From the NCBI GenBank assembly GCA_013316825.1, contig WSLY01000010.1, positions 1-64,000 on the forward strand: a stretch of DNA of 64,000 bases, in the 5' to 3' direction. The DNA comes from Lachnospiraceae bacterium (GTDB lineage Bacteria; Bacillota; Clostridia; Lachnospirales; Lachnospiraceae). Shown one piece after another: positions 37,018 to 59,574 of the stretch; the first letter of the stretch is position 1, and every line of letters begins with the position of its first letter. The position numbers were made by a program, and so were the translations under genes. The notes under the pieces were generated by a model, which saw only the letters and a program-made list of their open reading frames with translations, had not been told where the DNA came from and searched no databases.

Positions 37018-38028
37018 ATGGCTTTATTTGAATCATATGAAAGACGTATTGATCAGATTAACAATGTACTGAACAGCTACGGCATTTCTTCCATTGAGGA
37101 AGCTGAAAAAATTACAAAGGATGCCGGACTGGACGTATATGAGCAGGTGAAGAAAATCCAGCCTATCTGTTTTGAAAATGCATGTTGGGCTTACACCGTA
37201 GGCGCAGCAATTGCAATTAAAAAGGGCTGCCGCAAGGCTGCTGAGGCTGCTGCTGCAATCGGCGAAGGCTTACAGGCATTTTGTATTCCCGGTTCTGTGG
37301 CGGATACTCGTAAGGTTGGTCTTGGACATGGCAATTTGGGAAAAATGTTGTTGGAGGAAGAAACGGACTGCTTCTGTTTCCTTGCAGGACATGAATCCTT
37401 TGCAGCGGCAGAAGGCGCTATCGGTATTGCGGAAAAGGCAAATAAAGTACGCCAGAAACCTTTACGTGTTATCCTGAACGGACTTGGCAAGGATGCAGCG
37501 CAGATTATCTCCAGAATCAATGGATTTACCTACGTAGAGACCCAGTATGACCCGTATACCAATAAGGTGGAGGAAGTGTTCCGCAAACCCTATTCAGAAG
37601 GTCTTCGTGCGAAGGTAAACTGCTATGGCGCTAATTCTGTTCCGGAAGGCGTTGCAATTATGTGGAAAGAAAACGTGGATGTATCCATCACCGGCAATTC
37701 CACCAATCCTACCAGATTCCAGCATCCGGTTGCAGGTACATACAAGAAAGAAAGAACCGAAGCAGGAAAGAAGTATTTCTCCGTAGCTTCCGGCGGCGGT
37801 ACAGGACGTACCCTGCATCCCGACAATATGGCGGCGGGTCCCGCTTCTTATGGCTTCACCGATACGTTGGGACGTATGCACTCTGATGCACAGTTCGCAG
37901 GCTCTTCCTCCGTACCTGCTCATGTGGAGATGATGGGACTTATTGGTATGGGCAATAACCCCATGGTTGGTGCAACCGTTGCGGTTGCCGTTTCCGTAGA
38001 GGAGGCAGCCAAGGAAGGGAAGTTCTAA
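37018..38028 (+). CDS. GGGtGRT family protein (function unknown)
   Basis: 336 residues. The name-giving motif is present (ASGGGTGRTLHPDNMAAG, about residues 258-275), followed by a Gly/Ala-rich C-terminus (GLIGMGNNPMVGATVAVAV). A mid-region KKGCRKAAEAAAAIGEGL and CIPGSVADTRKVGLGHGNLG suggest a phosphate- or nucleotide-binding enzyme, but I know of no assigned activity. No membrane segment. It has AGAGGAGG upstream and is in one operon with the NifU-like gene, so it may receive an Fe-S cluster. A terminator follows at 38188. Confidence 0.85.
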   Translation: MALFESYERRIDQINNVLNSYGISSIEEAEKITKDAGLDVYEQVKKIQPICFENACWAYTVGAAIAIKKGCRKAAEAAAAIGEGLQAFCIPGSVADTRKVGLGHGNLGKMLLEEETDCFCFLAGHESFAAAEGAIGIAEKANKVRQKPLRVILNGLGKDAAQIISRINGFTYVETQYDPYTNKVEEVFRKPYSEGLRAKVNCYGANSVPEGVAIMWKENVDVSITGNSTNPTRFQHPVAGTYKKERTEAGKKYFSVASGGGTGRTLHPDNMAAGPASYGFTDTLGRMHSDAQFAGSSSVPAHVEMMGLIGMGNNPMVGATVAVAVSVEEAAKEGKF

Positions 38029-38187
38029 ATTACCTTGTGAATTAATATATGGTAGATGCCTTTATGGATAAACTACGATAAGGTGCGGAAGACTTGGTAT
38101 GCGGTTCCGCGCATTGTCAGATGGCGGACTATTGATCGCAGGTGCTGGCAAAAAAGATATCAAAGATTTTATACAACCAAAATAAAG

Positions 38188-38227
38188 AGCAGCGCTTTGC
38201 TTTATCGAAGCAAGAGCGCTGCTTTTT
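38188..38227. terminator. Terminator between GGGtGRT gene and glycerate kinase
   Basis: AGCAGCGCT plus TTGCTT pairs with AAGCAA plus AGCGCTGCT (one bulged G), followed by five T. It lies between convergent genes. The 245-nt gap also has a GCGGAA/TTCCGC pairing near 38083-38113 of unknown use. Confidence 0.85.
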
Positions 38228-38273
38228 GCATCCTAAGAAAATTTGTCTCTTTTATATAAAGAGTACGGTTTAT

Positions 38274-39434
38274 TTATTTCTTTTGCAGCGCCATGCCTGC
38301 CTTGAGTAAAAGAAAGGTTCGCTCAGCAGCATCGCGCAGCAGATTCTGGGAATGCCGGAAGACTTCCGTTAGTGGCATGACACGGTTTAAGGCAGGTACA
38401 ATTGCCGTAATCCCGCAGTCGTAGAGCAGCTTTGCATCAGGGCGCATACCGCCTGCAATGGCAATTACAGGAATCCCTTTTTCTTTGGCGCTTGTACCGA
38501 TACCCCAGAGTACTTTCCCCTGCGCAGACTGTCCGTCCGCACAGCCTTCTCCGGTGATGACAATATCTGCATGTTCTAAAAACAATTCAAACCGGACAAG
38601 CTTTAACATAGTCTTTATGCCGGACTGCAGTTTTGCGTCCAAAAAGGCGCAGAGAGCGCCGCTAAGCCCGCCGGCAGCGCCGGAGCCGGAAACATCTTTG
38701 ATATCCTTTCCCAAATCTCTTTTTATTACCTCTGCAAAATGTAACATACCTTCTTCTAAGAGAAAGAGCGCGTCATCAGCGGCGCCTTTTTGGGGAGCGT
38801 AGGTGTAAGTGGCACCGTCAGGACCCGTGAAAGGGCTGCGGACATCGCACATGACAGTAAAAGAAACATTCTCTGTAAGCTCCGGTAGTCTGCCTGATGT
38901 ATCGATACGGGAAATATGAATTAAATTTTCTCCCGTCGGCGTTACGTCTCTGCCATTTTCATCCAGAAAGCGAAAACCCAGTGCTGCCATGGCGCCGGCA
39001 CCGCCGTCGTTGGTTGCACTTCCGCCAACAGCAATGGTGATATCCTTGATTCCCTGCCTTAAGGCATCGGCAATCAATTCTCCGGTTCCGTAAGAAGTGG
39101 TTATTAAGGCGTTTCTTTGAGCGGCTGGGAGCAGGGTGAGACCGGAAGCTGCCGCCATCTCTATGATGGCGGAGAGGCTGCCGTCTATGTTTTCCATGAT
39201 TCCGTAAGCAGCGTCTACTTGTTCAAAAAGAGGATTCGTGACGGCAATATGCCGCGTCCTGCCGCCGCATGAGGCAAGAACGGCTTGAACGGTGCCTTCG
39301 CCGCCGTCAGCAATGGGAACTCCCGTAATTTTTGCTTCGGGAAAATGAAGGTGTGCTTCCGCCGACACAATTTCTATAATCTGTTTAGAAGAAAGGGTTC
39401 CTTTGAAGGAATCCGGTGCAATGACAATGTGCAT
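38274..39434 (-). CDS. glxK: Glycerate kinase
   Basis: Phosphorylates D-glycerate; the GarK/GlxK family, to which this belongs, is known to give 2-phosphoglycerate. 386 residues with the family start IVIAPDSFKGTLSS, the VPIADGGEGTVQA block, GGSATNDGGAGAMAALG near residue 136, and GEGCADGQSAQGKVLWG in the C-terminal domain. AAAGGAG precedes the ATG. It lies 20 nt downstream of the LacI-type gene on the same strand and is divergent from the glucosylglycerate phosphorylase operon. It should therefore consume the glycerate that enzyme releases. Confidence 0.95.
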   Translation of the reverse strand: MHIVIAPDSFKGTLSSKQIIEIVSAEAHLHFPEAKITGVPIADGGEGTVQAVLASCGGRTRHIAVTNPLFEQVDAAYGIMENIDGSLSAIIEMAAASGLTLLPAAQRNALITTSYGTGELIADALRQGIKDITIAVGGSATNDGGAGAMAALGFRFLDENGRDVTPTGENLIHISRIDTSGRLPELTENVSFTVMCDVRSPFTGPDGATYTYAPQKGAADDALFLLEEGMLHFAEVIKRDLGKDIKDVSGSGAAGGLSGALCAFLDAKLQSGIKTMLKLVRFELFLEHADIVITGEGCADGQSAQGKVLWGIGTSAKEKGIPVIAIAGGMRPDAKLLYDCGITAIVPALNRVMPLTEVFRHSQNLLRDAAERTFLLLKAGMALQKK

Positions 39435-39454
39435 AAGAAATACTCCTTTATCAG

Positions 39455-40486
39455 TTACTGGTGTTTCAAATTGGCAACAGAGCCGCGAAACTGTATTTTT
39501 GTGGGAAGCATTTGGCTGGTTTCTTTTTTATCTGATTGAATCATGGAGAAGAGCTTGGAAGCGGAAATCATACCAAGTTCATGAATAGGAACACGTATGG
39601 TGGTGAGGGGCGGCGTAAGGAGAGAGGAAAAATCAAAGTCATTATGCCCGAACACCGAAATATCCTCGGGAATACGCAGGTTCATATTGCGTGCTGCCTT
39701 GTAGATGCCGAGCGCCTTGATATCATCGGTGGCAAAAATAGCAGTAAGCTGTCTGTTAGAACAGAGAAGATTGAGCGCTGCCATATAAGCTGTGTCCACG
39801 GTATCGCCGCCGTCTACAAAGCAGTCCTCGTCGAACGCAATGTGACGGGTCTTTAAGCAGTCCTTTAGTCCCTGTACACGGTCCACTGCCACATAATGAT
39901 TTAAGGGGGCGTGGATGCAGCCGATGTGCGTGTGTCCCATTTGCAGCAGATAGTCGCCAATCTCATAGCTGTCCTGATAATTGTCCGTGTCCACGGATAC
40001 AATGCATTCTGAGTGAATGGAAGGGTTGTATTTTCCGATTACCACAATCGGAATCCCCGTGCCGGCCAAAACTTCCAGAAATTTACTGTTGGTACGGCTG
40101 CTCAAGAGCACAATACCTTTAATCAGCTTGCTATTTATCATGGAAACAGCCTTCTCAATTTCATTATCTTCATTGTCGTTGGAATGCAGAATCAAATCAT
40201 AGTCATTTTGCTCGGCTACCATACCGATAGAACCGATAATGTTGCCAAAATAGGGGTTGTCGGCAGCCTGCGTGGACGAGCGCGTAAAGATAATGAGAAT
40301 GTTGTTGAAACCGTTGGATGAGAGTCCTCTTGCAAGCTGGTTTGGAATATAATCCAGTTCCTTCATGACAGAGAGCACTTTGGAACGGGTTTCCGGCAGT
40401 ACAGCGGGATGATTGTTCATTACCCGCGATACGGTTGACATGGAAACACCTGCTTTTTTGGCTACTAATTGAATTGTTGGTTTCAT
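39455..40486 (-). CDS. LacI-family regulator of the sugar locus
   Basis: 343 residues. The N-terminal helix-turn-helix is PTIQLVAKKAGVSMSTVSRVMN, followed by the hinge and a sensor domain with PEDISVFGHNDFDFSSLLTPPLTT. It is first in an operon with glycerate kinase and divergent from the phosphorylase-transporter operon. Two LacI-type operators lie ahead of that operon and a palindrome lies ahead of its own start, so it probably represses both directions and is relieved by glucosylglycerate or a breakdown product. The ligand is inferred from neighbours. Confidence 0.92.
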   Translation of the reverse strand: MKPTIQLVAKKAGVSMSTVSRVMNNHPAVLPETRSKVLSVMKELDYIPNQLARGLSSNGFNNILIIFTRSSTQAADNPYFGNIIGSIGMVAEQNDYDLILHSNDNEDNEIEKAVSMINSKLIKGIVLLSSRTNSKFLEVLAGTGIPIVVIGKYNPSIHSECIVSVDTDNYQDSYEIGDYLLQMGHTHIGCIHAPLNHYVAVDRVQGLKDCLKTRHIAFDEDCFVDGGDTVDTAYMAALNLLCSNRQLTAIFATDDIKALGIYKAARNMNLRIPEDISVFGHNDFDFSSLLTPPLTTIRVPIHELGMISASKLFSMIQSDKKETSQMLPTKIQFRGSVANLKHQ

Positions 40487-40501
40487 AGACCCCTCCCGCT
40501 G

Positions 40502-40516
40502 TGAAAAAGTTTTTCA
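40502..40516. promoter_or_regulatory. Palindrome near the start of the LacI gene (candidate autoregulatory site)
   Basis: TGAAAAA-G-TTTTTCA, a perfect 7-1-7 dyad just after the expected transcription start of the minus-strand regulator. It shares the TGAAAA half with the downstream operator at 40837 but lacks the central CG. Confidence 0.4.
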
Positions 40517-40529
40517 TGAACATATGAAA

Positions 40530-40558
40530 ATTATACCAAACAAAATGTACAAACGCAA
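40530..40558 (-). promoter_or_regulatory. Candidate promoter of lacI-glxK
   Basis: On the minus strand, TTGCGT (40558-40553) and TATAAT (40535-40530) have a 17-nt spacer. The 415-bp gap 40487-40901 thus holds two divergent promoters and three operator-like sites. The remainder is AT-rich with nothing else recognisable. Confidence 0.5.
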
Positions 40559-40693
40559 GAAAAATATGAAAAAAATATAAAAATGCAAAGAATAATGCAT
40601 CCAAACCTTTTAGAAAAGCATTGAGATAATTAGAGAAAGATAGCGTATTATATAGGATAAAAGAACTAAAACAAAACTTTTTCAAAAAAACTC

Positions 40694-40722
40694 TTTACAA
40701 ATTTCATGTCATTGTATATAAT
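40694..40722 (+). promoter_or_regulatory. Sigma-A promoter of the phosphorylase operon
   Basis: TTTACA and perfect TATAAT with a 17-nt spacer. The expected start (about 40729) abuts the operator at 40730, a classical repression geometry. The leader would be about 170 nt. Confidence 0.7.
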
Positions 40723-40729
40723 CAAGTTA

Positions 40730-40743
40730 TGGAAACGCTTCCA
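40730..40743. promoter_or_regulatory. LacI-type operator O1
   Basis: TGGAAACGCTTCCA fits the LacI/CcpA-type pattern TGnAAnCGnTTnCA at every fixed position. It lies at the predicted +1 of the phosphorylase operon. A catabolite (cre/CcpA) site is an alternative reading. Confidence 0.7.
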
Positions 40744-40836
40744 CGAAAGAAGAGAAAGCAAGATAAAATAATATGTAAAACATATAAAAAAAGCTGATTT
40801 TTGCATAAATAACATACTATATCACCAATTAGTATA

Positions 40837-40850
40837 TGAAAACGTTACCA
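40837..40850. promoter_or_regulatory. LacI-type operator O2
   Basis: TGAAAACGTTACCA keeps the AACGTT core with one mismatch to TGnAAnCGnTTnCA. Its centre is 107 bp from O1, about ten helical turns, which would suit DNA looping. Confidence 0.5.
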
Positions 40851-40901
40851 TGAGAGAAAAATGAGTGGGATAAAAGAAAGAACAGAGAATACCGGAGGAA
40901 A

Positions 40902-42569
40902 GTGGGCAAGGGCATGAACTGGAAAGAACGTTTTACCGACATTTACGGCGAAGAAGCAGGAGAAAAGTGGCTGCCGAAGCTGGAAAAGAGGATACAGGAA
41001 GCCAAAGAGTCGCTGAAAAATAAAACGGCGGATGCAGAGAATCAATATGTGATATTAATTACCTATCCGGATCAGTTTTACGGAGAAAAGAATCGACTGG
41101 AATTGTTTGAACGGTTTGCCGCAAAGTATTTGGAAGGTATATTTGACGCCATACATTTTCTTCCGTTTTGTCCTTACTCGTCGGATGACGGTTTTTCGGT
41201 GATGGATTACAAAAGCTTGAACAGCGGATTGGGAGATTGGGAAAATTTAGAAGGACTTTCCGGCAATTTTACCCTGATGTATGATTTTGTGTGCAATCAT
41301 GTGTCGGCAAAGCATAAATGGTTTTTGAAATGCCTTGACGGAGATAAAACATATGAAAAATATTTCATGGAGACGGACCCGAAAGAAGACTTATCCATGG
41401 TGACAAGGCCAAGAACGACGCCGCTGCTCACAAAATTTGATACGGCAGACGGTGAAAAGTATTATTGGACTACCTTCAGTGCGGACCAGATAGATTTAAA
41501 TTACCGCAATCCGGCGGTTTTTTCAGAGGCGGCAGATATTTTTCTGACGTATCTGGAAAGAGGAGGAACATGGATTCGGCTGGACGCCATCGGTTTTTTG
41601 TGGAAAGAAGCCGGCACCACCTGTATGCACCATGAAAACACACATAAGCTGGTCAAACTGCTCCGCAGCATAATGGAGGAGGTTTATCCGGAGGGCAGAA
41701 TTGTAACGGAAACCAACGTGCCCCATGCGGATAATGTTTCTTATTTTGGAAACGGATATGATGAAAGTCATATGGTATACCAGTTTCCGTTACCTATGCT
41801 GGTACTCTACAGTTTTTATAAGAAGGAGGCGTCAATTCTGTCGAACTGGGCATTAGGGCTTTCACTGCCTTCTGAGAGGACAAGTTTTTTTAACTTTCTT
41901 GCTTCTCACGACGGAATTGGCGTCAATCCGGTCAGAAGTATTGTGCCGGAGGAAGAAATCAATGGTCTGATTGCGCATTTGCAGGAAAAATCCGGCGCGT
42001 TGGTTTCTTACAAAGAAAACGCGGACGGCTCAAAAAGTGCTTACGAAGTGAATGTATCGTATTTCTCCGCTTTGCGGGAAGACTATGATTTTGAGACGGC
42101 AAAGCGCCGGTATCTGAATGCGCACGGCGTACTGCTGGGTATGCAGGGAGATGCCGCCATCTATATCAATTCCTATCTTGGAGTAGAAAATGACGAAGAA
42201 GGAGTTTGTCGGACAGGTATGAACAGAAGCATCAACCGAAAAAAAATTCGCTATGATGAACTGATGGAAAAACTGGAACATGCGGAGGACGGACAGGCGC
42301 AGATAAGAAAGGAAATGGAAAAGCTGATACGTATCAGGAAAAGCTGTGACGCTTTTGATACCCATGCAGAACAGAAGGTTTTGCAGGAAGAAAAAGAATT
42401 ATTTTCCTACATCAGGAACGGAAAGACGAAAAGGGTGCTCTGCCTTCACAATTTTTCGGAGAAGGAGATAGAAAAGAGCGGCATCAAAGGAACGGATTTG
42501 TGGACAGGAGAAAAAGTGAATGGCGTTGTGAAGATTTTACCCTATGGATTTAAATGGATAATCCTGTAA
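40902..42569 (+). CDS. GH13_18 glycoside phosphorylase, probable glucosylglycerate phosphorylase (YcjM-like)
   Basis: 555 residues of the sucrose-phosphorylase subfamily. From memory, E. coli YcjM (glucosylglycerate phosphorylase) shares long segments such as TETNVPHADNVSYFG and LASHDGIGVNPVR, unlike true sucrose phosphorylases. Catalytic residues are present: nucleophile Asp228 (RLDAIGF), acid/base Glu270 (VTETNVP) and Asp337 (ASHDGIG). Predicted reaction: 2-O-glucosyl-D-glycerate plus phosphate to glucose-1-phosphate and D-glycerate. The divergent glycerate kinase supports this. The start is ambiguous: GTG 40902 follows GGAGG closely, ATG 40914 aligns better with YcjM. No signal peptide, so it acts on imported substrate. 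Confidence 0.88.
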   Translation: MGKGMNWKERFTDIYGEEAGEKWLPKLEKRIQEAKESLKNKTADAENQYVILITYPDQFYGEKNRLELFERFAAKYLEGIFDAIHFLPFCPYSSDDGFSVMDYKSLNSGLGDWENLEGLSGNFTLMYDFVCNHVSAKHKWFLKCLDGDKTYEKYFMETDPKEDLSMVTRPRTTPLLTKFDTADGEKYYWTTFSADQIDLNYRNPAVFSEAADIFLTYLERGGTWIRLDAIGFLWKEAGTTCMHHENTHKLVKLLRSIMEEVYPEGRIVTETNVPHADNVSYFGNGYDESHMVYQFPLPMLVLYSFYKKEASILSNWALGLSLPSERTSFFNFLASHDGIGVNPVRSIVPEEEINGLIAHLQEKSGALVSYKENADGSKSAYEVNVSYFSALREDYDFETAKRRYLNAHGVLLGMQGDAAIYINSYLGVENDEEGVCRTGMNRSINRKKIRYDELMEKLEHAEDGQAQIRKEMEKLIRIRKSCDAFDTHAEQKVLQEEKELFSYIRNGKTKRVLCLHNFSEKEIEKSGIKGTDLWTGEKVNGVVKILPYGFKWIIL

Positions 42570-42579
42570 GAATGTATGC

Positions 42580-42602
42580 TTTTTCCCCTTTTCAGGGAAA
42601 GG
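42580..42602 (+). other. Intercistronic hairpin before the binding-protein gene
   Basis: TTTCCC / GGGAAA stem extended by two wobble pairs, 7-nt loop, no T tract after it. It may protect the 3' or 5' end of a processed mRNA so that binding protein outruns phosphorylase. Confidence 0.35.
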
Positions 42603-42662
42603 CTTCATTATAGAATACAAACCCCATAAAGCAAAAAGGATAAAAGAAAGGAAGGAAAGGTT

Positions 42663-44033
42663 ATGAAAAAGATGAAAAAGACATTGGCGGCTATTTTAGC
42701 GGCAGCAATGACGCTCAGCCTCGCGGCATGTGGCGGCAAAGAACCGGAAAATGTTCCGAAGCAGGATACACCGTCAGCAGAGAGCCCTACCCCGGCTCCC
42801 TCTGAACCTGAAAATGAGGAAAAAAATCCTGTTACCATCCAGTTTATGCACAGCATGGTACAGGAGGAACGCCAGCAGGCAATTCAGGGACTTATCGACA
42901 AATTTGAGGAGGAATATTCCTGGATTACGGTGGAGCAGGTCCCGACGGACGGTGAATCTACTTATGATACCAAGCTGACGGCTTTTGCGGGCGGCGGTAT
43001 GCCCGCAGTGATTGAAGTAAACCAAAATCGGGCAAAATGGCTGGTAGGAAACGAGCTTGCGGACCTTTCTGCCATCCGTGAAGTAATTGAAGCAAAACCC
43101 GGCGAGTATTATGATGCTATCTTAAAGATTAATACGACGGAAGACGGACAGGATTTTATCGGTGTTCCTGTCGGCGGCTGGGTGCAGGGAATTTGGTACA
43201 ATAAGACTGCTTTTGACGAGAAGGGATTGGCAGCTCCTGATACATGGGAGAACATTCTTGCAGCAGCAAAGGCATTCCACGACCCTGACAACAAGAAATA
43301 CGGCATTGCGCTTCCCACGGTGGACGGTGCATTTTCTGAGCAGAGTTTTTCTCAGTTTGCGTTATCGGTAGGAGCAAATGCGCTGAATGCGGACGGTGAA
43401 GCAGATTTCAATTCTGACAAGATGATAGAAGCGCTGACTTTTTATAAGGAGCTCTACCAGTATTCCATCCAGGGGTCTAACGGCACCACCGAGGTAAAGG
43501 ATGCTTTGCTGAACGGTTCTGTACCCATGGGTATTTATTCTACCTATATTTTAAAAGATTTGATAAATGAAGGTATGATGGATGATTTTGGTTTTGCACT
43601 GGTAACCAAGGAAACCAGCGCATCCTACGGCAGCGTTGGTATGCTTTCTGTCTCCGACGGCTTAAGCGACGAGGAAAGAGAAGCAGCAATCCTCTTTGTG
43701 AAATTCCTGGTAGAAACGGAAAACAATGTTGCATGGCTTCATATGGCACCCGGAGGACAGCAGCCGGTTATGCCTGCAGTAGCAAGCGATCCTGCTTATC
43801 TGGATAATGAAATCATCAAAGGATTTGAAGCACTTTCACCGGAAATTTCCGCAGCTTTTGGAAGCATCTCCCTGTTCGGTATTGTGGATGGCAGGAATTT
43901 TGTAAGCATGGGTAATGTTACAAGCTCCAATGTTATCTCAAGGGCAATCTATGACCTTACTGTCAATGATAAGGATCCGGCTGAAGTGGCGGCTGAGACA
44001 CAAAAACAGATAGAGGATTTGATTTCTCAATAA
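42663..44033 (+). CDS. Sugar ABC transporter substrate-binding lipoprotein
   Basis: 456 residues. Lipoprotein signal with lipobox LAAC (Cys23), a Ser/Pro/Glu linker, then a family-1 extracellular solute-binding domain (VTIQFMHSMVQEERQQAI.., PVGGWVQGIWYNKTAFDEKGL, NGSVPMGIYSTYIL). It should capture the glycoside outside the cell for the two permeases that follow. AAGGAAAGG ribosome site. Hairpins on both sides (42580, 44084) suggest differential expression from the rest of the operon. The ligand is probably a glucosylglycerate-like compound, by context. Confidence 0.92.
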   Translation: MKKMKKTLAAILAAAMTLSLAACGGKEPENVPKQDTPSAESPTPAPSEPENEEKNPVTIQFMHSMVQEERQQAIQGLIDKFEEEYSWITVEQVPTDGESTYDTKLTAFAGGGMPAVIEVNQNRAKWLVGNELADLSAIREVIEAKPGEYYDAILKINTTEDGQDFIGVPVGGWVQGIWYNKTAFDEKGLAAPDTWENILAAAKAFHDPDNKKYGIALPTVDGAFSEQSFSQFALSVGANALNADGEADFNSDKMIEALTFYKELYQYSIQGSNGTTEVKDALLNGSVPMGIYSTYILKDLINEGMMDDFGFALVTKETSASYGSVGMLSVSDGLSDEEREAAILFVKFLVETENNVAWLHMAPGGQQPVMPAVASDPAYLDNEIIKGFEALSPEISAAFGSISLFGIVDGRNFVSMGNVTSSNVISRAIYDLTVNDKDPAEVAAETQKQIEDLISQ

Positions 44034-44047
44034 CAGACGTTCAAAGC

Positions 44048-44076
44048 AATAAGCAAGGCTTTATTGCTTCAGAAGC
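44048..44076 (+). repeat. 29-nt post-stop repeat element, copy B
   Basis: Second copy, 14 nt after the stop of the binding-protein gene. With the preceding bases it folds as AAGCAATAAGC / GCTTTATTGCTT around a 3-nt loop (44044-44069). A strong hairpin follows 7 nt later. Confidence 0.6.
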
Positions 44077-44083
44077 TTAACAA

Positions 44084-44122
44084 GGGGCTGTCCATACTGC
44101 ATTTTGGCTGCGGGACAGCCCC
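44084..44122 (+). terminator. Hairpin between binding protein and permease genes
   Basis: 10-bp stem GGGGCTGTCC / GGACAGCCCC with a 19-nt loop, 109-nt intergenic gap. Without a T tract it is more likely a partial attenuator or mRNA stabiliser than a full terminator, as is common after binding-protein genes. Confidence 0.6.
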
Positions 44123-44142
44123 ATCTTGTAAGGAGTGAGGCG

Positions 44143-45006
44143 ATGAACAGAAAAAAAGAAATGACAGCAGGATTTTTATTTATAGCGCCCAGCATATTGC
44201 TGATCGTACTGCTGATTGGCTATCCTATGATATACAATTTCATTATCAGCTTTCATAAGGTGCCGGTCAATCCCAAAAAACCCATGCAGTTTGTAAACTT
44301 TGGGAATTTTACGAAAACGCTGGCGGACCCGTCTTTTTATAAGGCGCTTGGCGTAACCGTATTTTTTACTCTTTTGGTGGTTTTTTTGAGTACGGCGGTG
44401 GGACTGGCTGTTGCAATTCTTTTAAACCGCCGGTTCTTTGGCAAAAAAATCGTGAAGGCGCTGATACTGCTTCCGTATATTGTACCTTCCGTATCCTTGA
44501 TTTTTGCATGGAAGTACATGTTTAACAACACCTATGGAATTGTCAATTACCTGTTTGTGGATGTTTTGGGGCTGTTTGAGCGGGCGCCGCTTTGGTTTGA
44601 CCGTCCGGCAAGTGCTTTTGTGCTGGTAACGCTGTTTTGTGTGTGGAAGTTTTTCCCTTATGCATTTATGTCGTTTTATGCCATACTGCAGACCATCGAC
44701 AGGACGTTGTACGAAGCGGCGGATGTGGACGGCGCAAACGGCTGGCAGAAATTCAAAGTCATTACACTGCAGGAAATCAAGCCGGTGCTGGCGACAGTTG
44801 TTACACTCCGCACCATATGGGTATTTTATATGTACACGGAAGTTGCTCTTTTGAGCGGGCAGGTGAAGACAATCAGCGTGTATCTGTATGAAAATGCATT
44901 TTCCATGCGGGATATGGGAAAGGCCGCCGCTATTTCTATTCTGCTGTTTGCTATTATCTTCAGCTTTATTATGCTGGTGAGAAAGAAGGTGTTTAAGTAT
45001 GAGTAA
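44143..45006 (+). CDS. Sugar ABC transporter permease, MalF/UgpA type
   Basis: 287 residues with six predicted membrane segments and the EAA motif YEAADVDGANGWQKFKVITLQEIKP for ATPase docking. The ATG at 44143 has AAGGAG 7 nt upstream; the longer frame starts inside the preceding hairpin. It overlaps the next permease by 8 nt. No ATPase gene is in this operon, so a shared MsmK/UgpC-type ATPase encoded elsewhere probably energises it, as is usual in Firmicutes. Confidence 0.92.
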   Translation: MNRKKEMTAGFLFIAPSILLIVLLIGYPMIYNFIISFHKVPVNPKKPMQFVNFGNFTKTLADPSFYKALGVTVFFTLLVVFLSTAVGLAVAILLNRRFFGKKIVKALILLPYIVPSVSLIFAWKYMFNNTYGIVNYLFVDVLGLFERAPLWFDRPASAFVLVTLFCVWKFFPYAFMSFYAILQTIDRTLYEAADVDGANGWQKFKVITLQEIKPVLATVVTLRTIWVFYMYTEVALLSGQVKTISVYLYENAFSMRDMGKAAAISILLFAIIFSFIMLVRKKVFKYE

Positions 45007-45847
45007 AAAAAAGAAGAAAAAAATAGTGCGGGGCATATTTTTTTATGCGGGCATCCTGCTGCTCATGGCGGTGATTCTGATTCCCTTCTTTTTCATGGTT
45101 ACGGTGTCCTTGAAATCGGCAAAGGAAGCGATTCAGGTTCCGCCCACCGTACTTCCCGAAGCACTTACTTTACAGCATTATAAAGATATTTTCAACGCCA
45201 ACATTTTTCCGTTTTTAAAGTATTTTAAAAACAGCCTTTATGTGTCGGTACTGGCGGCGTCGATTTCGCTTGTTTTGGGTATTATGGCGGGATATGCGCT
45301 TTCGAAGCTCAGGTTTCCCGGGCGGATGACCATCAGCAACAGTTTTTACTGCGTCTATATGTTTTCCGGCATTCTGCTGATTGTGCCTCTTTACAGGCTG
45401 CTTTCATCCGTTGGACTTTATAACCACAGAGAAGCGCTGATTATTATCATGGTGGTGCAGACACTTCCGACATCGATTTATATGCTGAAGGGCTTTTTTG
45501 ATACGATTCCGCAGGAAATCGAGGAGGCAGGAAAAATTGACGGGCTGAATTATGTGCAGAGTATTTTCTACATCGTTATCCCTATTTCCGTATCGGGTAT
45601 CGTATCGGTATTTGTATATGCGTTTATGATTGCATGGAACGACTTTTTATATGCGACCATATTCTTAAGTTCATCTGATTTGTTTACGCTGCCAATCGGG
45701 TTGAATTCGCTGTTCAACCGCCCTGATTATATTTGGGGGCGCATGATGGCGGCGGCGCTTGTCACATCGGTTCCGGTCGTCATTATGTATGCATTCAGCG
45801 AGTTTCTGATGAAAAAGGGAACAACCGAAGGCGGCGTGAAAGGATAA
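44999..45847 (+). CDS. Sugar ABC transporter permease, MalG/UgpE type
   Basis: 282 residues, six predicted membrane segments. A Lys-rich N-terminus (SKKKKKKIVRG) faces the cytoplasm, and the EAA loop is IPQEIEEAGKIDGLNYVQSIFYIVIPI. It completes the heterodimeric channel with the overlapping upstream gene. Its stop is 20 nt before the dehydrogenase start, keeping transport and catabolism in one transcript. Confidence 0.92.
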   Translation: MSKKKKKKIVRGIFFYAGILLLMAVILIPFFFMVTVSLKSAKEAIQVPPTVLPEALTLQHYKDIFNANIFPFLKYFKNSLYVSVLAASISLVLGIMAGYALSKLRFPGRMTISNSFYCVYMFSGILLIVPLYRLLSSVGLYNHREALIIIMVVQTLPTSIYMLKGFFDTIPQEIEEAGKIDGLNYVQSIFYIVIPISVSGIVSVFVYAFMIAWNDFLYATIFLSSSDLFTLPIGLNSLFNRPDYIWGRMMAAALVTSVPVVIMYAFSEFLMKKGTTEGGVKG

Positions 45848-45867
45848 AATGGGAAAGGAAGAAAAAG

Positions 45868-46866
45868 ATGGAAAGAGTAAGACTGACTTCCATGGAGGAT
45901 GGTATTGTATTTTTAAAAAAGGAGACGATAGAGGAGCCGAAGGATACGGAGGTTACGGTAGCGCTAAAGGCTTCCGTCGTGAGCCCGGGAACGGAGCGCG
46001 CGTTCATTCTGTCATTGGAAAACACGGACCGCAATTATCCGCGTATATTAGGCTACAGTGCTGCCGGCGTAGTGGTAAAGACAGGAAAGAAGGTAACGGA
46101 TTTTAAGGTGGGAGACAGAGTTGCGGGCATTATGCCCCATGCCAGTCTTCACAATGCGGAAAGTAGAAATCTGGTGCATATTCCTGATGGCGTCAGCTTT
46201 GAGCAGGCGTCGTTTGTGAGAATCGGCGTTATTTCCATGCAGGCAGTCAGAAAGGCAAGGCTGGAGCTGGGAGAGGGCGCCATGGTGCTGGGACTGGGGC
46301 TGATTGGACAGATGGCAGTGCAGCTTGTAAAGACAAACGGCGCGTCTCCCGTTATTGGTCTGGATATTGTGGAAAGCAAGCGCTGTCTGGCGAAAGAGCT
46401 TGGCTGTACTTACGTGTGTGATTCCCGTCAGGAAGATATCGAAGAAATCTTAAAGGGCATTGGAAACGGAAAACTGCCGCAGGTGGTAGTAGAATCTACC
46501 GGCTTCCCGGGTCCTATAGAACAGGCAATCCGGTTGACGGAAAAGTATGGCAGGGTTATAATTTTAGGAAGTACCAGAGGCAGCACGGAAATTAATTTTT
46601 ATCGTGACGTACACAAAAAAGGAATTCAGATTATCGGTGCGCATATTTCCTGTAATCCGACAGATTTCTCTTATCCCGGATACTGGACTTTTCAGGATAA
46701 TGCAAACTGCTTCATGCGTCTTTTGTCAGAAGGCAGGGTATGTGTGGACAAGCTGGTATCCCAGCGTGCAGATTATCATGATTACAATGAAATATACGCA
46801 AATGTGCTGCAGTCAAAAGAGGATTATATTACATCCGTCATTACATGGGAGGAGGAGCGGGCATGA
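45868..46866 (+). CDS. Medium-chain dehydrogenase (YcjQ-like), zinc-site residues not canonical
   Basis: 332 residues of the MDR superfamily. The Rossmann motif is GLGLIGQMAVQLVK (about 141-154). The normal GHE zinc loop is replaced by RILGYSAAGVV and the structural four-Cys lobe is absent, as in the E. coli guloside 3-dehydrogenase YcjQ and the Bchl/bi-domain oxidoreductase group. By analogy it may interconvert a glycoside and its 3-keto form with NAD(H). I chose the ATG at 45868 (AAAGGAAG upstream); the longer frame lies inside the permease gene. The stop overlaps the next start (ATGA). Confidence 0.82.
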   Translation: MERVRLTSMEDGIVFLKKETIEEPKDTEVTVALKASVVSPGTERAFILSLENTDRNYPRILGYSAAGVVVKTGKKVTDFKVGDRVAGIMPHASLHNAESRNLVHIPDGVSFEQASFVRIGVISMQAVRKARLELGEGAMVLGLGLIGQMAVQLVKTNGASPVIGLDIVESKRCLAKELGCTYVCDSRQEDIEEILKGIGNGKLPQVVVESTGFPGPIEQAIRLTEKYGRVIILGSTRGSTEINFYRDVHKKGIQIIGAHISCNPTDFSYPGYWTFQDNANCFMRLLSEGRVCVDKLVSQRADYHDYNEIYANVLQSKEDYITSVITWEEERA

Positions 46867-47858
46867 AAGAAACAGTAAATTATGCAATTGTAGGATGCGG
46901 TTCTATTTCCAAAACCCATATAAAGGCGCTTGCGCAGGTGGAAAATGCCAAGCTGTATGCCGTCTGCGATAAGTCGGCGGAGCGGGCAGAGGCAGCGGCG
47001 GCATTAAGCGGCGCCATAGTCTATACGGATTTGGATGAGATGCTTGCCGACAAGGAGGTGGATGCCGTTATTATCCTGACGGCAAGCGGCATGCACGGCG
47101 ATATGGGCATGAAGGCAGCAAAAGCAGGTAAGCATGTAATCGTGGAGAAGCCTATCGACATATCGGTGGAAAAAGCAAAGCAGCTTATAAGCACTTGCGA
47201 GGAAAATCAGGTTTCGGTAAGCTGCATTTTCCAGCACCGTTACGATGCGGATACAAAAGCGCTCGCCGAGGCGGTAAAGGAAGGCAGGCTGGGAACCCTT
47301 CATGCCGGCTGCTGTCATACCAAATGGTACAGGGGGCAGGCATATTATGATGAGGTGGACTGGCGCGGAACCCGCAGGTATGACGGAGGCGGCGCACTGA
47401 TGAATCAGGGTATCCATCAGCTTGATTTGTTCCAATATCTAATGGGCGAAGTGGAGGAGGTTTTTGCTTACTGCGCAACAAGGGCACATGAGCGGATTGA
47501 TGTGGAAGATTTATGCATGGCGACGCTGAAATTTAAGAATGGTGCGCTGGGAATACTGGAGGCAAGTACCGTGGCAGCTCCCGGTTTTTATACCAGAATT
47601 GACATAAACGGAAGCAGAGGCAGCGTCATTTTACAGAATAATGCCGTGGCAGAGTGGAAAATTGAGGGAGAAGAAGCCTATCAAACACAGGAAACACAGC
47701 TTCCTCACAGGATACAGCTTGCGGAAATTACAGAAAGCATCCGAAAGGGTGTGCCTTCACTGGTAAACGGCAGGGAAGCTTTAAAGGCTTTGCAGGTGGT
47801 AGAAGCCATCTATAAATCGGCAGAAACGGGAAAGCCCGAAAAAATCTGCTATGAATAG
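46863..47858 (+). CDS. Gfo/Idh/MocA-family oxidoreductase (YcjS-like)
   Basis: 331 residues. The N-terminal NAD domain begins YAIVGCGSISKTHIKAL; the family EKP motif gives Lys96 (IVEKPIDI), and catalytic His185 lies in NQGIHQLDLF with Asp188. The region WRGTRRYDGGGALMNQG is the substrate loop. E. coli YcjS of this family oxidises D-glucosides at C3; a similar 3-dehydrogenase role is likely here given the neighbours. It is coupled to the previous gene by ATGA with GGAGGAG upstream, and the GH4 gene starts 34 nt after its stop. Confidence 0.85.
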   Translation: MKETVNYAIVGCGSISKTHIKALAQVENAKLYAVCDKSAERAEAAAALSGAIVYTDLDEMLADKEVDAVIILTASGMHGDMGMKAAKAGKHVIVEKPIDISVEKAKQLISTCEENQVSVSCIFQHRYDADTKALAEAVKEGRLGTLHAGCCHTKWYRGQAYYDEVDWRGTRRYDGGGALMNQGIHQLDLFQYLMGEVEEVFAYCATRAHERIDVEDLCMATLKFKNGALGILEASTVAAPGFYTRIDINGSRGSVILQNNAVAEWKIEGEEAYQTQETQLPHRIQLAEITESIRKGVPSLVNGREALKALQVVEAIYKSAETGKPEKICYE

Positions 47859-47892
47859 CCGCAGTACGGCAGAATGGGAGGAGAAAGGAAAC

Positions 47893-49275
47893 ATGGAATA
47901 CGGCAAAAACAGTTGCAGTGACATTCAGATTTGCTATATCGGCGGAGGCTCGCAGGGCTGGGCATGGAAGCTGATGAGCGACCTTTATCTGGAGGAGGCG
48001 CTTTCCGGCACCATAAGATTGTATGATATTGATATGGAGGCGGCGAAAGCCAATGAAGCCATCGGAAACAGGCTTTTTGCCTATGAAGGAGCAAAAAGCA
48101 AATGGAATTTTGTGACGGCTGCTTCTTTGGAGGAGGGGCTTAAGGGTGCGGATTTTGTTATTATTTCCATACTGCCCGCTACTTTTGAGGAGATGCGCTC
48201 CGACGTACATGCGCCGGAAACTTATGGTATCTATCAGTCCGTAGGCGATACTGTGGGACCGGGCGGGGTATTCCGCGCCCTCAGGACAATTCCGATGTAT
48301 GAGGTGATTGCAGGCGCCATCAAGACATATTGTCCTAATGCGTGGCTCATCAACTATACCAATCCCATGTCCATCTGTACGGGTGCGCTTTACCGGATAT
48401 TTCCGGATATCAAGGCATTCGGATGCTGCCATGAGGTATTTGGCGCGCAGCGGCTTTTGCTGATGGCGTTAAAAGAGGAGCTTGGCATTGAAGAACCGGA
48501 CCGGCATAAGCTGCGCACCAATGTAGTGGGCATCAACCATTTTACATGGATTACGGAGGCCTCCTACAAAGAGGTGGACTTGTTCCCCATATATGCGCGT
48601 TTTGTAGAAAAACATTATAAAGAAGGCATCTGCGACAAGGTGACGGATTTTCATTTTATGTCCCTCAATAAAGTGAAATTTGATTTGTTTCAAAGATACG
48701 GCGTAATTGCGGCAGCGGGAGACCGGCATCTGGCTGAGTTTGTGCCGGAATACCTGCAGAATCCGGAGAATGTAGAGGCGTGGGGATACGCGCTTACGCC
48801 GATAGAATACCGTATAGACAATAAAAAGGAACTAAATGAAAAGAGCCGTGCCTATGCAACCGGTGCGGAGCCGATTCCCATCGAGCCTTCGGGCGAGGAG
48901 GGTGTTGCGCAGATAAAGGCACTTTTAGGGCTGGGAGAGATCATTACCAATGTAAACCTGCCCAACAGAGGACAGCTTCAGGCTTCACAGGAGATAGTGG
49001 TGGAGACCAATGCGCTTTTTACCAAAGACTCTGTGCGTCCGGTTATGGCAGGGGCGCTTCCTGACGGCGTTGCGCTTTTGATGGGCAGGCATATGCAGAA
49101 TCAGGAGATGATAGTAAAAGCGGCGCTTCACAGAGATACAAAACTTGCTTTTGAAGCTTTCTGCAATGACCCGATTACGGCGTGTCTTAGCTTAAAACAG
49201 GCGAAAGAGTTGTTTGGGCGCATGTTTGAAAATACAAGGCAGTATCTGCCGGATTATGCGCCGCTGTCCGTATAG
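47893..49275 (+). CDS. GH4 glycosidase, LplD-like (alpha-galacturonidase-type)
   Basis: 460 residues. GH4 enzymes oxidise the sugar at C3 with NAD+ and Mn2+, then cleave by elimination. NAD loop YIGGGSQGWAWKL near residue 16; metal ligands Cys179-His180 in GCCHEVFG and His216 in GINHFTWI; VGDTVGPGG and NYTNPMSICT are also present. From memory the match is closest to B. subtilis LplD (alpha-galacturonidase), with which it shares SVGDTVGPGG and SGEEGV-containing blocks, rather than MelA or 6-phospho-glucosidases. The ATG at 47893 follows GGAGGAGAAAGG. Last gene of the locus. Its real substrate here may be the same imported glycoside in oxidised or epimerised form. Confidence 0.9.
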   Translation: MEYGKNSCSDIQICYIGGGSQGWAWKLMSDLYLEEALSGTIRLYDIDMEAAKANEAIGNRLFAYEGAKSKWNFVTAASLEEGLKGADFVIISILPATFEEMRSDVHAPETYGIYQSVGDTVGPGGVFRALRTIPMYEVIAGAIKTYCPNAWLINYTNPMSICTGALYRIFPDIKAFGCCHEVFGAQRLLLMALKEELGIEEPDRHKLRTNVVGINHFTWITEASYKEVDLFPIYARFVEKHYKEGICDKVTDFHFMSLNKVKFDLFQRYGVIAAAGDRHLAEFVPEYLQNPENVEAWGYALTPIEYRIDNKKELNEKSRAYATGAEPIPIEPSGEEGVAQIKALLGLGEIITNVNLPNRGQLQASQEIVVETNALFTKDSVRPVMAGALPDGVALLMGRHMQNQEMIVKAALHRDTKLAFEAFCNDPITACLSLKQAKELFGRMFENTRQYLPDYAPLSV

Positions 49276-49295
49276 CGGACTGTCATGTTTATGCG

Positions 49296-49316
49296 ACATA
49301 TTTTGCGAAAATATGT
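49296..49316. promoter_or_regulatory. AT-rich dyad touching the -35 of the next gene
   Basis: ACATATTTT / AAAATATGT, a 9-bp inverted repeat with a GCG loop. It ends on the first base of the -35 box, so it could be a weak terminator for the GH4 gene or an operator for the zinc-ribbon gene. Confidence 0.4.
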
Positions 49317-49344
49317 TGACTTCCTCTATGGCAGGGTATAAGAT
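49316..49344 (+). promoter_or_regulatory. Sigma-A promoter of the zinc-ribbon/DUF4190 gene
   Basis: TTGACT and TAAGAT with a 17-nt spacer, 42 nt before the ATG. Confidence 0.6.
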
Positions 49345-49386
49345 AAGAGAGTATTTAGCGAAATTTTCTTATTAGGAGGAAGAAGT

Positions 49387-49923
49387 ATGTTTTGTAATCA
49401 ATGTGGAACACAGGTGAATGATGGTCAGGCATTCTGCCCGAACTGCGGCGCCCCGATAGGAGCACAGCAGGAGCAGAATACGGCGCCGATGAACAGTATG
49501 CCGGCAAGTGCTCCTTACCAGCAGCCGATGGCTCCTATGGGCGGCAGCAGCAATACCAACAACACGATAGCTCTTATTCTTGGTATCGTAAGTATCATAC
49601 TCGGTGTATTGGGCGGGGTGCTGTTTGGTTTATTTGGCGCAGCCTTTGGTCTGGTTGCAGGCGTTGTTGCGCTCGTTTTAAGCATCGGTGTGAGAAAAGA
49701 GACGAACAATGCGCAGGGCACCCCCGCTTTTATCTGTGCTCTTATCGGTCTTATCTTCTCTGTTATTTTTGCGGCAGGCTGCGGTATCTGCGGCTGCTCT
49801 CAGAAAGTGGCTGGTTTAGGTGATTACACCTGCTATGGCTGTGTGGGCGGAAACTGCAAGGCACAGAGTGATTTGAAGGGCGCTTATCGTGACCTCAATG
49901 ATTTTTTAAATGAATGGTATTAA
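49387..49923 (+). CDS. Zinc-ribbon membrane protein with DUF4190-like domain
   Basis: 178 residues. The N-terminal zinc ribbon FCNQCGTQVNDGQAFCPNCGA has four Cys; a Gln/Met/Pro linker follows, then two membrane segments (about 58-85 and 105-128) of the DUF4190 type with a short Cys-rich tail (CGICGCSQKVAGLGDYTCYGC). It sits alone under its own promoter. The function is unknown; the zinc ribbon is cytoplasmic by topology. The gene at 50884 has the same membrane module with a different N-terminus. Confidence 0.82.
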   Translation: MFCNQCGTQVNDGQAFCPNCGAPIGAQQEQNTAPMNSMPASAPYQQPMAPMGGSSNTNNTIALILGIVSIILGVLGGVLFGLFGAAFGLVAGVVALVLSIGVRKETNNAQGTPAFICALIGLIFSVIFAAGCGICGCSQKVAGLGDYTCYGCVGGNCKAQSDLKGAYRDLNDFLNEWY

Positions 49924-49955
49924 AGCAGGCTGTTTCAGATAAACGGCTGGCTGTG

Positions 49956-49984
49956 AATAAGCATGATTTGATTGCTTCAGAGGC
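49956..49984 (+). repeat. 29-nt post-stop repeat element, copy C
   Basis: Third copy, 24 of 29 bases identical to copy B by eye. It begins 33 nt after the stop of the zinc-ribbon gene and its end overlaps the left arm of the following hairpin. Confidence 0.55.
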
Positions 49985-50008
49985 TGTTGCATAAGCAACA
50001 GCCTCTTT
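49979..50008 (+). terminator. Hairpin upstream of lgt
   Basis: 12-bp perfect stem AGAGGCTGTTGC / GCAACAGCCTCT with an ATAA loop and a short TTT tail. It ends only 15 nt before the lgt start. Confidence 0.75.
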
Positions 50009-50835: not shown

Positions 50836-50883
50836 CTTTCTGGTAGTAATCATGTAAATTTGACGGGGAAGGAGTTTTATATT

Positions 50884-51492
50884 ATGGAAGGACAAAATTT
50901 TAATAATGGGTATGAATCGCAGCAGGGGCAGAATGGAAGCGGACAGACCGGAAACGGACAGAGTTCCGTTTACGGGCAGCCGGCATATAACCAGCAGCAA
51001 CAGGCGCAAAATTCTTATGGGCAGAACCCTTACGGACAAAATGGCTATGGACAGAACCCTTATGGGCAGAATCCCTATGGACAGAACGGTTATGGGCAGA
51101 ATGGCTATGGACAGAATGGCTATGGACAGAATGGCTATGGACAGAATGGCTATGGGCAGCCGCCTTATGCGTATGGGCAAAACGGCTATGGGCAGCCGCA
51201 GAAACAGATAAGCGGATGGTCTATTGCCGGTTTTATCATTGGTACGCTGGGACTGGTAAGTTCTTTTCTTCTCAGTTGGATTTCCGCGTTGGTGGCAGTT
51301 GTGGGGCTGGTGTTCTCCATCGTGGGACAGGCGCTGAAAAAGTCCGGCTTTGGCGTAGCTGCTATTATTTTGAGTGTGCTGGGAATTCTTGCCGGCGTGG
51401 GATTTTTTATTCTGTACCTGTTTATCTTAAGTAACGGCGGCTTTTTTTTGTCGCATACTTCTGTCGGTAACTTATCTGATATGTTTAGATAG
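50884..51492 (+). CDS. Gly/Tyr/Gln/Asn-repeat membrane protein with DUF4190-like domain
   Basis: 202 residues. The first 110 are low-complexity, built on [10 protein letters not shown] pentads; then come two membrane segments (about 116-140 and 158-180) like those of the protein at 49387, but no zinc ribbon. The ATG at 50884 has AAGGAG 9 nt upstream. The Q/N/Y-rich tail faces the cytoplasm if topology matches the paralog, and could self-associate. Function unknown. Confidence 0.78.
51015..51195 (+). repeat. 15-nt tandem coding repeat (GYGQN)
   Basis: About eleven near-identical 15-nt units; five in the middle are almost base-identical. Copy number is likely variable, always in frame. Confidence 0.8.
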
Positions 51493-57288: not shown

Positions 57289-57777
57289 ATGAAGAAGATA
57301 TATTCCGTGCTGGTGGAGAACCGTTCCGGCGTGCTGTGCAAAGTAGCGGGACTTTTCTCAAGAAGGTGTTTCAATATAGACAGTCTTGCCGTTGGGGAGA
57401 CAGACGATGCCGCCGTATCCTGTATGACGATTGTTTCAAGCGGGAACGAGCGCACTATAGAACAGATTGAAAAGCAGCTCAATAAAAAGCTGGACGTGAT
57501 TAAGGTAAAGACCTTTGACGAAATCCAGAGCATAAGCAGGGAGCTTATGCTTGTCAAGGTAAAGTATAATAAAAGTACACGCCGTGAAATTATGGAAATA
57601 TGCGAGGTCATGAAGGCGGATATTGTGGATATGTCAAAAAACCAGATGATGATACAGGTGTGTGACATTCCGGAGCGGACGAAGCTGTTTATTTCTATGC
57701 TGGCATCGATCAGTATTGTCGAAGTGGCGCGGACAGGGACGCTTGCCCTGCCGAAATGTGCGGAGAGCGATAACTGA
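57289..57777 (+). CDS. ilvN: Acetolactate synthase, small (regulatory) subunit, copy 1
   Basis: 162 residues: an ACT domain (KKIYSVLVENRSGVLCKVAGLFSRRCFNIDSL) plus the C-terminal ALS domain. Valine-site residues known from E. coli IlvH are partly kept: the Gly of NRSGVL and the Asn of FNIDS are present, the following Ala is Gly. AGGAGG upstream. It shares a transcript with ilvB2. The tail differs much from the next ilvN. Confidence 0.92.
   Translation: MKKIYSVLVENRSGVLCKVAGLFSRRCFNIDSLAVGETDDAAVSCMTIVSSGNERTIEQIEKQLNKKLDVIKVKTFDEIQSISRELMLVKVKYNKSTRREIMEICEVMKADIVDMSKNQMMIQVCDIPERTKLFISMLASISIVEVARTGTLALPKCAESDN

Positions 57778-57917: not shown

Positions 57918-59574
<1,657 letters not shown>

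What the first reader, a model, noticed from the sequence alone, without database searches (positions are those of the whole stretch)
45868..49275. Three NAD-dependent enzymes suggest a 3-keto-glycoside route with GH4 replacing the YcjR epimerase
Seen: a zinc-loop-less MDR enzyme (YcjQ-like), a Gfo/Idh/MocA enzyme (YcjS-like) and an LplD-like GH4 enzyme, tightly spaced or overlapping. Known: YcjS and YcjQ work on C3 of glucosides and gulosides, and GH4 enzymes cleave through a transient 3-keto sugar. Inference: the locus may oxidise or remodel the imported glycoside at C3 and cleave it by elimination, giving a second route beside phosphorolysis. I do not know this combination as a described pathway.
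Basis: partly seen in the sequence, partly recalled or inferred. Interest (0 to 1): 0.82.

Follow-up and report, generated by a model that had tools for sequence, protein, structure and literature searches.

The report
Galacturonide-processing gene trio beside glucosylglycerate operon
Three neighbouring genes in a gut bacterium look like a unit that adjusts and cuts a galacturonic-acid-containing sugar imported by a known but poorly understood transport operon, which offers a concrete way to look for that operon's unknown natural food.

Summary
In detail: a zinc-less MDR, a Gfo/Idh/MocA enzyme and an intact LplD-type GH4 follow a glucosylglycerate phosphorylase and its ABC importer. Regulator, phosphorylase and importer are 42-60% identical to YcjW/M/N/O/P, but MDR and Gfo match YcjQ and YcjS at only 26%. 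So GH4 does not replace YcjR; MDR-Gfo-GH4 is a separate module. In G168 uxaB-uxaA-uxaC, the galacturonate route, come next, so GH4 is probably an alpha-galacturonidase. The nearest solved structure to the Gfo enzyme, by sequence and fold, is WlbA, which binds a uronic-acid sugar and works at C3. MDR and Gfo also occur fused. Two relatives keep GH4 and glycerate kinase without the dehydrogenases, so GH4 does not depend on them. Most likely reading: the pair oxidises and re-reduces one carbon, probably C3, of an imported uronoside, giving the galacto form that GH4 cleaves. The pair's activity is inferred.

The parts
38274..39434 (-). glycerate kinase (TIGR00045), for the glycerate released by the phosphorylase; kept next to GH4 in L004 and L006
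   Evidence: NCBIfam TIGR00045 434.5 bits vs cut-off 168; neighbours
39455..40486 (-). LacI-family regulator, YcjW-like
   Evidence: 44% to E. coli YcjW
40730..40743 (.). LacI-type palindrome TGGAAACGCTTCCA, candidate operator
   Evidence: function not tested
40837..40850 (.). second LacI-type near-palindrome TGAAAACGTTACCA, candidate operator
   Evidence: seen by eye, located; function not tested
40902..42569 (+). GH13_18 2-O-glucosylglycerate phosphorylase (YcjM-like)
   Evidence: 45% to a 465-residue stretch of YcjM; has the TETN motif and loop-A Glu that PMC7178133 (passages read) gives as the signature
42663..44033 (+). ABC sugar-binding lipoprotein, YcjN-like
   Evidence: 42% to YcjN
44104..45006 (+). 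ABC permease, YcjO-like (an ATG at 44143 is also possible as start)
   Evidence: 58% to YcjO
44999..45847 (+). ABC permease, YcjP-like
   Evidence: 60% to YcjP
45868..46866 (+). zinc-less medium-chain dehydrogenase/reductase, first gene of the trio
   Evidence: Pfam; zinc ligands absent; model pLDDT 94.5, MDR fold; 26% to YcjQ
46845..47858 (+). Gfo/Idh/MocA dehydrogenase, WlbA-like, second gene of the trio (likely start 46863)
   Evidence: Pfam; best solved match WlbA 3q2k by sequence and fold; W.R.Q.Y motif in 34 of 34 aligned rows
47851..49275 (+). LplD-type GH4, probable alpha-galacturonidase, third gene of the trio (likely start 47893)
   Evidence: 3fef E=4.6e-145; intact motifs; uxaBAC follow it in G168

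Best explanation
The window holds a YcjMNOPW-type operon that imports an alpha-glycoside, with glucosylglycerate phosphorolysis and glycerate phosphorylation at its end. A distinct three-gene uronoside module, MDR-Gfo-GH4, is built into it. GH4 most likely hydrolyses an alpha-galacturonoside by its own redox/elimination cycle, and the galacturonate enters UxaC-UxaB-UxaA. MDR and Gfo most likely act as a coupled pair on the same carbon of the uronosyl residue, probably C3: one oxidises, the other reduces, so the net result is a change of configuration (or rescue of a 3-keto form) into the galacto form that GH4 accepts. Shown here: gene content, strong similarity of importer, phosphorylase and regulator to ycj, separateness from YcjQRS, linkage to uxaBAC in one genome, conservation of the pair. 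Inferred: substrate of GH4, carbon and direction of each dehydrogenase, the epimerisation.
For: GH4: best solved match is LplD alpha-galacturonidase, 487 bits against 97 for the next; intact motifs; in G168 uxaB-uxaA-uxaC follow on the same strand, 344 bases after GH4, with tagaturonate reductase and glucuronate isomerase above their NCBIfam cut-offs; UxaA/B/C-like genes (40-61%) within the fetched flanks of 19 of the 80 GH4 loci; UxaC in the window's own genome, on another contig. Pair: MDR and Gfo adjacent in window, L005 and G168; 24 of 28 more distant MDR loci also show a Gfo-like neighbour; fused MDR-Gfo proteins beside a heparinase II/III-like protein on a Parabacteroides plasmid and beside a protein annotated as alginate lyase family on a Streptomyces plasmid. 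C3 of a uronoside: WlbA is top by sequence (profile 283 bits; first other protein 196) and by fold, and shares the W.R.Q.YY...WRG motif; W.R.Q.Y is absent from the two YcjS proteins tested. Separateness. Phosphorylase signature.
Against: No activity is known for any of the three. NCBIfam's best names point elsewhere, though all are below cut-off: GH4 to alpha-galactosidase (265 bits, cut-off 486), Gfo to inositol 2-dehydrogenase (187, cut-off 355). The MDR has no close characterised relative (best solved matches about 16-24% identity), so its carbon and direction are guesses. WlbA acts on a nucleotide sugar, at 28-33% identity, and the loop with the shared motif is the least certain part of the Gfo model (pLDDT blocks of 72 and 64). 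The uxaBAC linkage of the trio is seen in one genome only; in the window these genes are not adjacent. The UxaA-like protein matched only galactarate dehydratase, below cut-off (272, cut-off 731), so its altronate role rests on resemblance. L004 and L006 keep GH4 without the pair, so the pair is not essential to what GH4 does there.
Confidence: 0.4

Rival explanations
1. GH4 is an ordinary alpha-galacturonidase and the two dehydrogenases process the released aglycone (a polyol, inositol or aldonate), not the uronoside.
For: GH4 persists without the pair in L004 and L006; the best NCBIfam match of Gfo is inositol 2-dehydrogenase (187 bits, cut-off 355), and MDR also matches scyllo-inosose 3-dehydrogenase (82 bits, cut-off 450).
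Against: Both scores are far below cut-off; WlbA scores well above any protein named inositol dehydrogenase in the solved structures (283 against 142 bits); the substrate-side motif matches WlbA.
Confidence: 0.25
2. One reading: MDR and/or Gfo pre-oxidise the imported glycoside at C3 and GH4 cleaves the 3-keto glycoside by elimination.
For: GH4 chemistry passes through C3 oxidation and beta-elimination (PMC10628242, passages read); a WlbA-type dehydrogenase is next door.
Against: GH4 makes its own 3-keto intermediate, and the same paper says GH4 enzymes hold the entire pathway in one active site; GH4 is retained without the pair in L004 and L006.
Confidence: 0.12
3. The pair is a salvage system that reduces 3-keto (or other keto) glycosides made by other bacteria before cleavage.
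For: Two reductase-capable enzymes in an import operon; Gfo enzyme of the WlbA type.
Against: One enzyme would do; I know of no source of keto-uronosides.
Confidence: 0.12
4. True YcjQ/YcjS replacements acting on glucosides, with GH4 acting on the same glucoside.
For: MDR stands right after the permease genes, as YcjQ does in E. coli.
Against: 26% identity and coexistence with true YcjQRS in G168; GH4 of LplD type with uxa genes after it there.
Confidence: 0.06

Closest known systems
E. coli ycjMNOPQRSTUVW cluster (YcjQ-YcjR-YcjS: D-guloside to D-glucoside)
   Same: Regulator, phosphorylase, binding protein and both permeases are 42-60% identical; an imported glycoside met by an MDR and a Gfo/Idh/MocA enzyme
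   Different: No match to YcjR, YcjT or YcjU; MDR and Gfo only 26% identical to YcjQ and YcjS; GH4 present; in G168 both modules coexist
LplD, GH4 alpha-galacturonidase (3fef; Bacillus origin recalled)
   Same: 487 bits over nearly the full length; about 50% identity to the Bacillus spizizenii homologue L054; same visible motifs
   Different: Sits with a dehydrogenase pair and a glucosylglycerate phosphorylase; separate branch from the two Bacillus rows in the tree
WlbA, dehydrogenase solved with NADH and UDP-GlcNAcA (3q2k, 3q2i)
   Same: Best match of the Gfo enzyme by sequence and fold; shared W.R.Q.YY and WRG motifs
   Different: WlbA is biosynthetic and binds a nucleotide sugar; the window enzyme is in a catabolic import operon
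Bi-domain-containing oxidoreductase (fused MDR and Gfo)
   Same: N-terminal half matches MDR (114 and 125 bits), C-terminal half matches Gfo (53 and 65 bits)
   Different: Single protein, in polysaccharide biosynthesis loci beside proteins annotated as alginate lyase family
Oxidation-elimination-hydration glycoside breakdown (levoglucosan PMC7676230, title and start of abstract in a listing; phlorizin PMC10628242, passages)
   Same: C3 oxidation by a dehydrogenase or oxidoreductase as first step
   Different: There separate eliminases and hydratases follow; GH4 combines all steps

Membership tests
Glucosylglycerate phosphorylase (GH13_18) | (T/S)ETN motif and Glu in loop A | tested here: met
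   TETN in RIVTETNVPH; AYEVN aligned to IYQIN of 7qqj; signature from PMC7178133
Glucosylglycerate phosphorylase (GH13_18) | Phosphorolysis of 2-O-glucosylglycerate | not testable with these tools
   needs an assay
GH4 | Pfam Glyco_hydro_4 and 4C, NAD-binding GGGS loop, Cys-His metal motif (roles of the motifs recalled) | tested here: met
LplD-type alpha-galacturonidase | Closest to LplD among solved GH4s, CHEV motif (its meaning recalled) | tested here: met
   487 bits to 3fef against 97 for the next; CHEVFG in window
LplD-type alpha-galacturonidase | Activity on alpha-galacturonides | not testable with these tools
   indirect: uxaBAC after GH4 in G168
YcjQ (D-guloside 3-dehydrogenase) | Orthology to E. 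coli YcjQ | tested here: not met
   26% identity; in G168 a true YcjQ (61% to E. coli) coexists with the trio's MDR (63% to the window's)
YcjS (D-glucoside 3-dehydrogenase) | Orthology to E. coli YcjS | tested here: not met
   26% identity; in G168 a true YcjS (45% to E. coli) coexists with the trio's Gfo (65% to the window's); both YcjS proteins lack the W.R.Q.Y motif
Zinc-dependent MDR | Catalytic Cys and His-Glu ligands and structural zinc loop | tested here: not met
   SPGTE and GYS in their place, loop region missing
WlbA-like Gfo/Idh/MocA group | Nearest fold and shared active-site motifs | tested here: met
WlbA-like Gfo/Idh/MocA group | Oxidation of C3 of a uronic-acid sugar | not testable with these tools
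   needs an assay; the catabolic context makes a UDP-sugar unlikely

The most novel reading that the evidence does not exclude
The operon family works as an assembly line on one oligosaccharide: a hexuronosyl unit capping a (gulosyl/glucosyl-)glucosyl-glycerate. MDR and Gfo flip C3 of the uronosyl cap without a separate epimerase, GH4 removes it as galacturonate, YcjQRS and YcjT trim the next unit where present (G168), and the phosphorylase and glycerate kinase finish the core. This would reveal the natural substrate of the ycj cluster and a new epimerise-then-cleave strategy.
Probability: 0.13. Interest if true: 0.75.

Novelty: new variant of a known kind. Interest (0 to 1): 0.5.

Why it matters
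The natural substrate of the ycj cluster appears to be unknown: a ligand screen of E. coli YcjN found no ligand (PMC11543891, passages read). The trio, and above all the G168 operon that joins it to uxaBAC and YcjQRST, suggests that the imported compound, or one of several, carries a galacturonate-type residue. That makes a defined set of candidate ligands testable. It would also show a dehydrogenase pair preparing a substrate for a glycosidase.

Tried and rejected
Rejected: that MDR and Gfo are YcjQ and YcjS; that GH4 replaces YcjR; that the trio is common. (61 genomes: the window's own and relatives): 15 matched the Gfo enzyme at E<=1e-40, none above 43% identity except the window itself. 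(391 class genomes): 27 matched MDR at E<=1e-45; besides the window only G168 was above 43%. Searches (398 phylum genomes, MDR, E<=1e-70; 397 family genomes, GH4, E<=1e-175): only the window itself. (22 genomes of G168's family, Gfo, E<=1e-80): only G168.

Led nowhere: the fold search of the MDR gave only general MDRs. Wider regions round ten distant MDR loci: nine of ten showed a Gfo-like neighbour at 22-29% identity, none a GH4 or uxa gene. Two archaeal plasmid regions with MDR relatives (33% identity) showed no GH4 in their annotation. Rfam found nothing in 38000-50000. Paper searches for galacturonidase with glucosylglycerate, and for at least two of galacturonidase, Gfo Idh MocA and 3-keto, gave one paper each, neither on this subject by title and abstract start. 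A 2024 paper that I recall as an alternative glycan-breakdown pathway is not held under the DOI I tried, nor are two ycj papers; what I say of YcjQRS activity comes from passages of PMC11543891 and RefSeq product names.
Full report
What is there. The window carries, left to right, glycerate kinase and a LacI regulator on the minus strand, then a GH13_18 phosphorylase, an ABC binding protein, two permeases, and the three genes of the finding on the plus strand. Pfam gives each its family. The three genes are tightly packed; by Shine-Dalgarno context the Gfo and GH4 proteins probably start at 46863 and 47893. Two LacI-type palindromes lie between regulator and operon.

The frame is a ycj operon without its middle. 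Against E. coli K-12 (L084) the regulator is 44%, phosphorylase 45% (over 465 residues, as YcjM was cut by the stretch), binding protein 42%, permeases 58% and 60% identical to YcjW, M, N, O and P. MDR and Gfo reach only 26% to YcjQ and YcjS, and none of the nine proteins matches YcjR, T or U at E<=0.01. The phosphorylase has the TETN motif and loop-A Glu that a review gives as the mark of glucosylglycerate phosphorylases (PMC7178133, passages read), and a glycerate kinase stands by, a neighbour the same review names as frequent.

The trio is its own module. In G168, a genome of another family of the same class (99% complete, 3% contamination, contig of 67,778 bases), one strand carries binding protein (53% to the window's), permeases (65, 69), MDR (63), Gfo (65), GH4 (68); then, 344 bases on, a tagaturonate reductase, a protein of the altronate/galactarate dehydratase kind and a glucuronate isomerase (UxaB, A, C); then YcjQ (61% to E. 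coli), YcjR (57), YcjS (45), YcjT (40) and YcjM (46% to the E. coli stretch, 44% to the window's). The LacI gene (47%) is divergent. True YcjQ and YcjS thus sit in the same operon as the trio's MDR and Gfo, which are only 24-28% like them. This speaks against GH4 replacing YcjR in a YcjQ-YcjS pathway. Of 391 class-level genomes, 10 have a close phosphorylase, the window's included. Five of these 10 carry YcjQRST, G168 among them, and only the window and G168 show the trio within the stretches read (for G154 the contig is 4.6 kb; near YcjQ of G257 no importer was detected).

GH4. Its nearest solved relative by far is LplD, named alpha-galacturonidase (487 bits, next 97), with the visible motifs conserved. 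NCBIfam's nearest name is alpha-galactosidase, below its cut-off (265, cut-off 486), and database names of relatives vary between alpha-galactosidase and galacturan 1,4-alpha-galacturonidase. The uxaBAC genes after it in G168 fit galacturonate as product. UxaC is present on another contig of the window's genome. Uxa-type genes lie within the fetched flanks of 19 of the 80 GH4 loci; many loci are short, several of these GH4s are distant, and the weaker UxaB hits (about 40%) could be fructuronate reductases.

GH4 does not need the pair. L004 and L006, two Lachnospiraceae genomes with the window's neighbouring genes around the site, have glycerate kinase and GH4 side by side with everything between missing. 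Searches of both genomes found no close phosphorylase (32% only) and no close Gfo enzyme (28-29%); MDR and importer were not searched there genome-wide. In a tree of 86 GH4 rows, 17 of 18 rows labelled as module and both of these lie in one supported clade of 53 rows (100/97), with the two nested among module rows, and L006 keeps a stretch like the window's Gfo-GH4 junction before GH4; loss of the block is the simpler reading. Limits: the module label rests partly on equal contig lengths, 33 rows of that clade have unknown context, the label needs three changes on the tree, one module row (Paenibacillus cremeus) falls outside, and some rows have long branches.

The dehydrogenase pair. The MDR lacks catalytic and structural zinc sites. 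Its model (pLDDT 94.5) is a plain MDR fold with no specific relative. The Gfo enzyme is closest to WlbA by sequence (profile 283 bits; first other protein 196) and by fold (the ten best rows are WlbA chains, solved with UDP-GlcNAcA). C3 oxidation of UDP-GlcNAcA is described for WbpB in PMC10622841 (passages read), which cites the WlbA papers; that WlbA is the same step is recalled. All 34 aligned rows share W.R.Q.Y; E. coli and G168 YcjS do not. In the Gfo model the region after this motif is the least certain. The MDR and Gfo genes stay together: 24 of 28 more distant MDR loci have a Gfo-like neighbour, and both domains are fused in two bi-domain oxidoreductases, one beside a heparinase II/III-like protein by Pfam, the other beside a protein annotated as alginate lyase family. 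Two enzymes that travel as one unit suggest oxidation and reduction of the same carbon. In an operon with an alpha-galacturonidase that would turn a non-galacto uronoside, or its keto form, into a galacturonoside. This last step is inference.

Against it. No activity is known for any of the three; the uxaBAC linkage of the trio rests on one genome; WlbA is distant (28-33%); an aglycone-processing role for the pair is not excluded.

Verdict. Real and rare, kept across two families of one class. I found no description of it in the listings, a library that lacks most subscription journals. New variant of a known kind.

Noticed in passing
L145 and L146 (G168 contig 6): A single operon joins importer, MDR-Gfo-GH4, uxaBAC and YcjQRST-M; the best natural clue to the ycj substrate seen here.
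   Followed up: partly
L004 2687-5425 and L006 8680-11422: The block from lacI to Gfo is missing while glycerate kinase and GH4 remain adjacent; why this pair is kept is unknown.
   Followed up: partly
window 50860-51492: ORF with many [15 protein letters not shown] repeats and a hydrophobic C-terminal half; read by eye, no family search made.
   Followed up: no
window 57289-57777 and 57918-58418: Two similar small ORFs in tandem that look like acetolactate-synthase small subunits, after an ORF that looks like the large subunit; read by eye, no family search made.
   Followed up: no
L158 3734-7419 and L159 3794-7950: Fused MDR-Gfo proteins directly followed by proteins annotated as alginate lyase family (heparinase II/III-like by Pfam in L158) in polysaccharide loci; one paper search for their name gave one paper, on Streptomyces transcriptomes.
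   Followed up: partly
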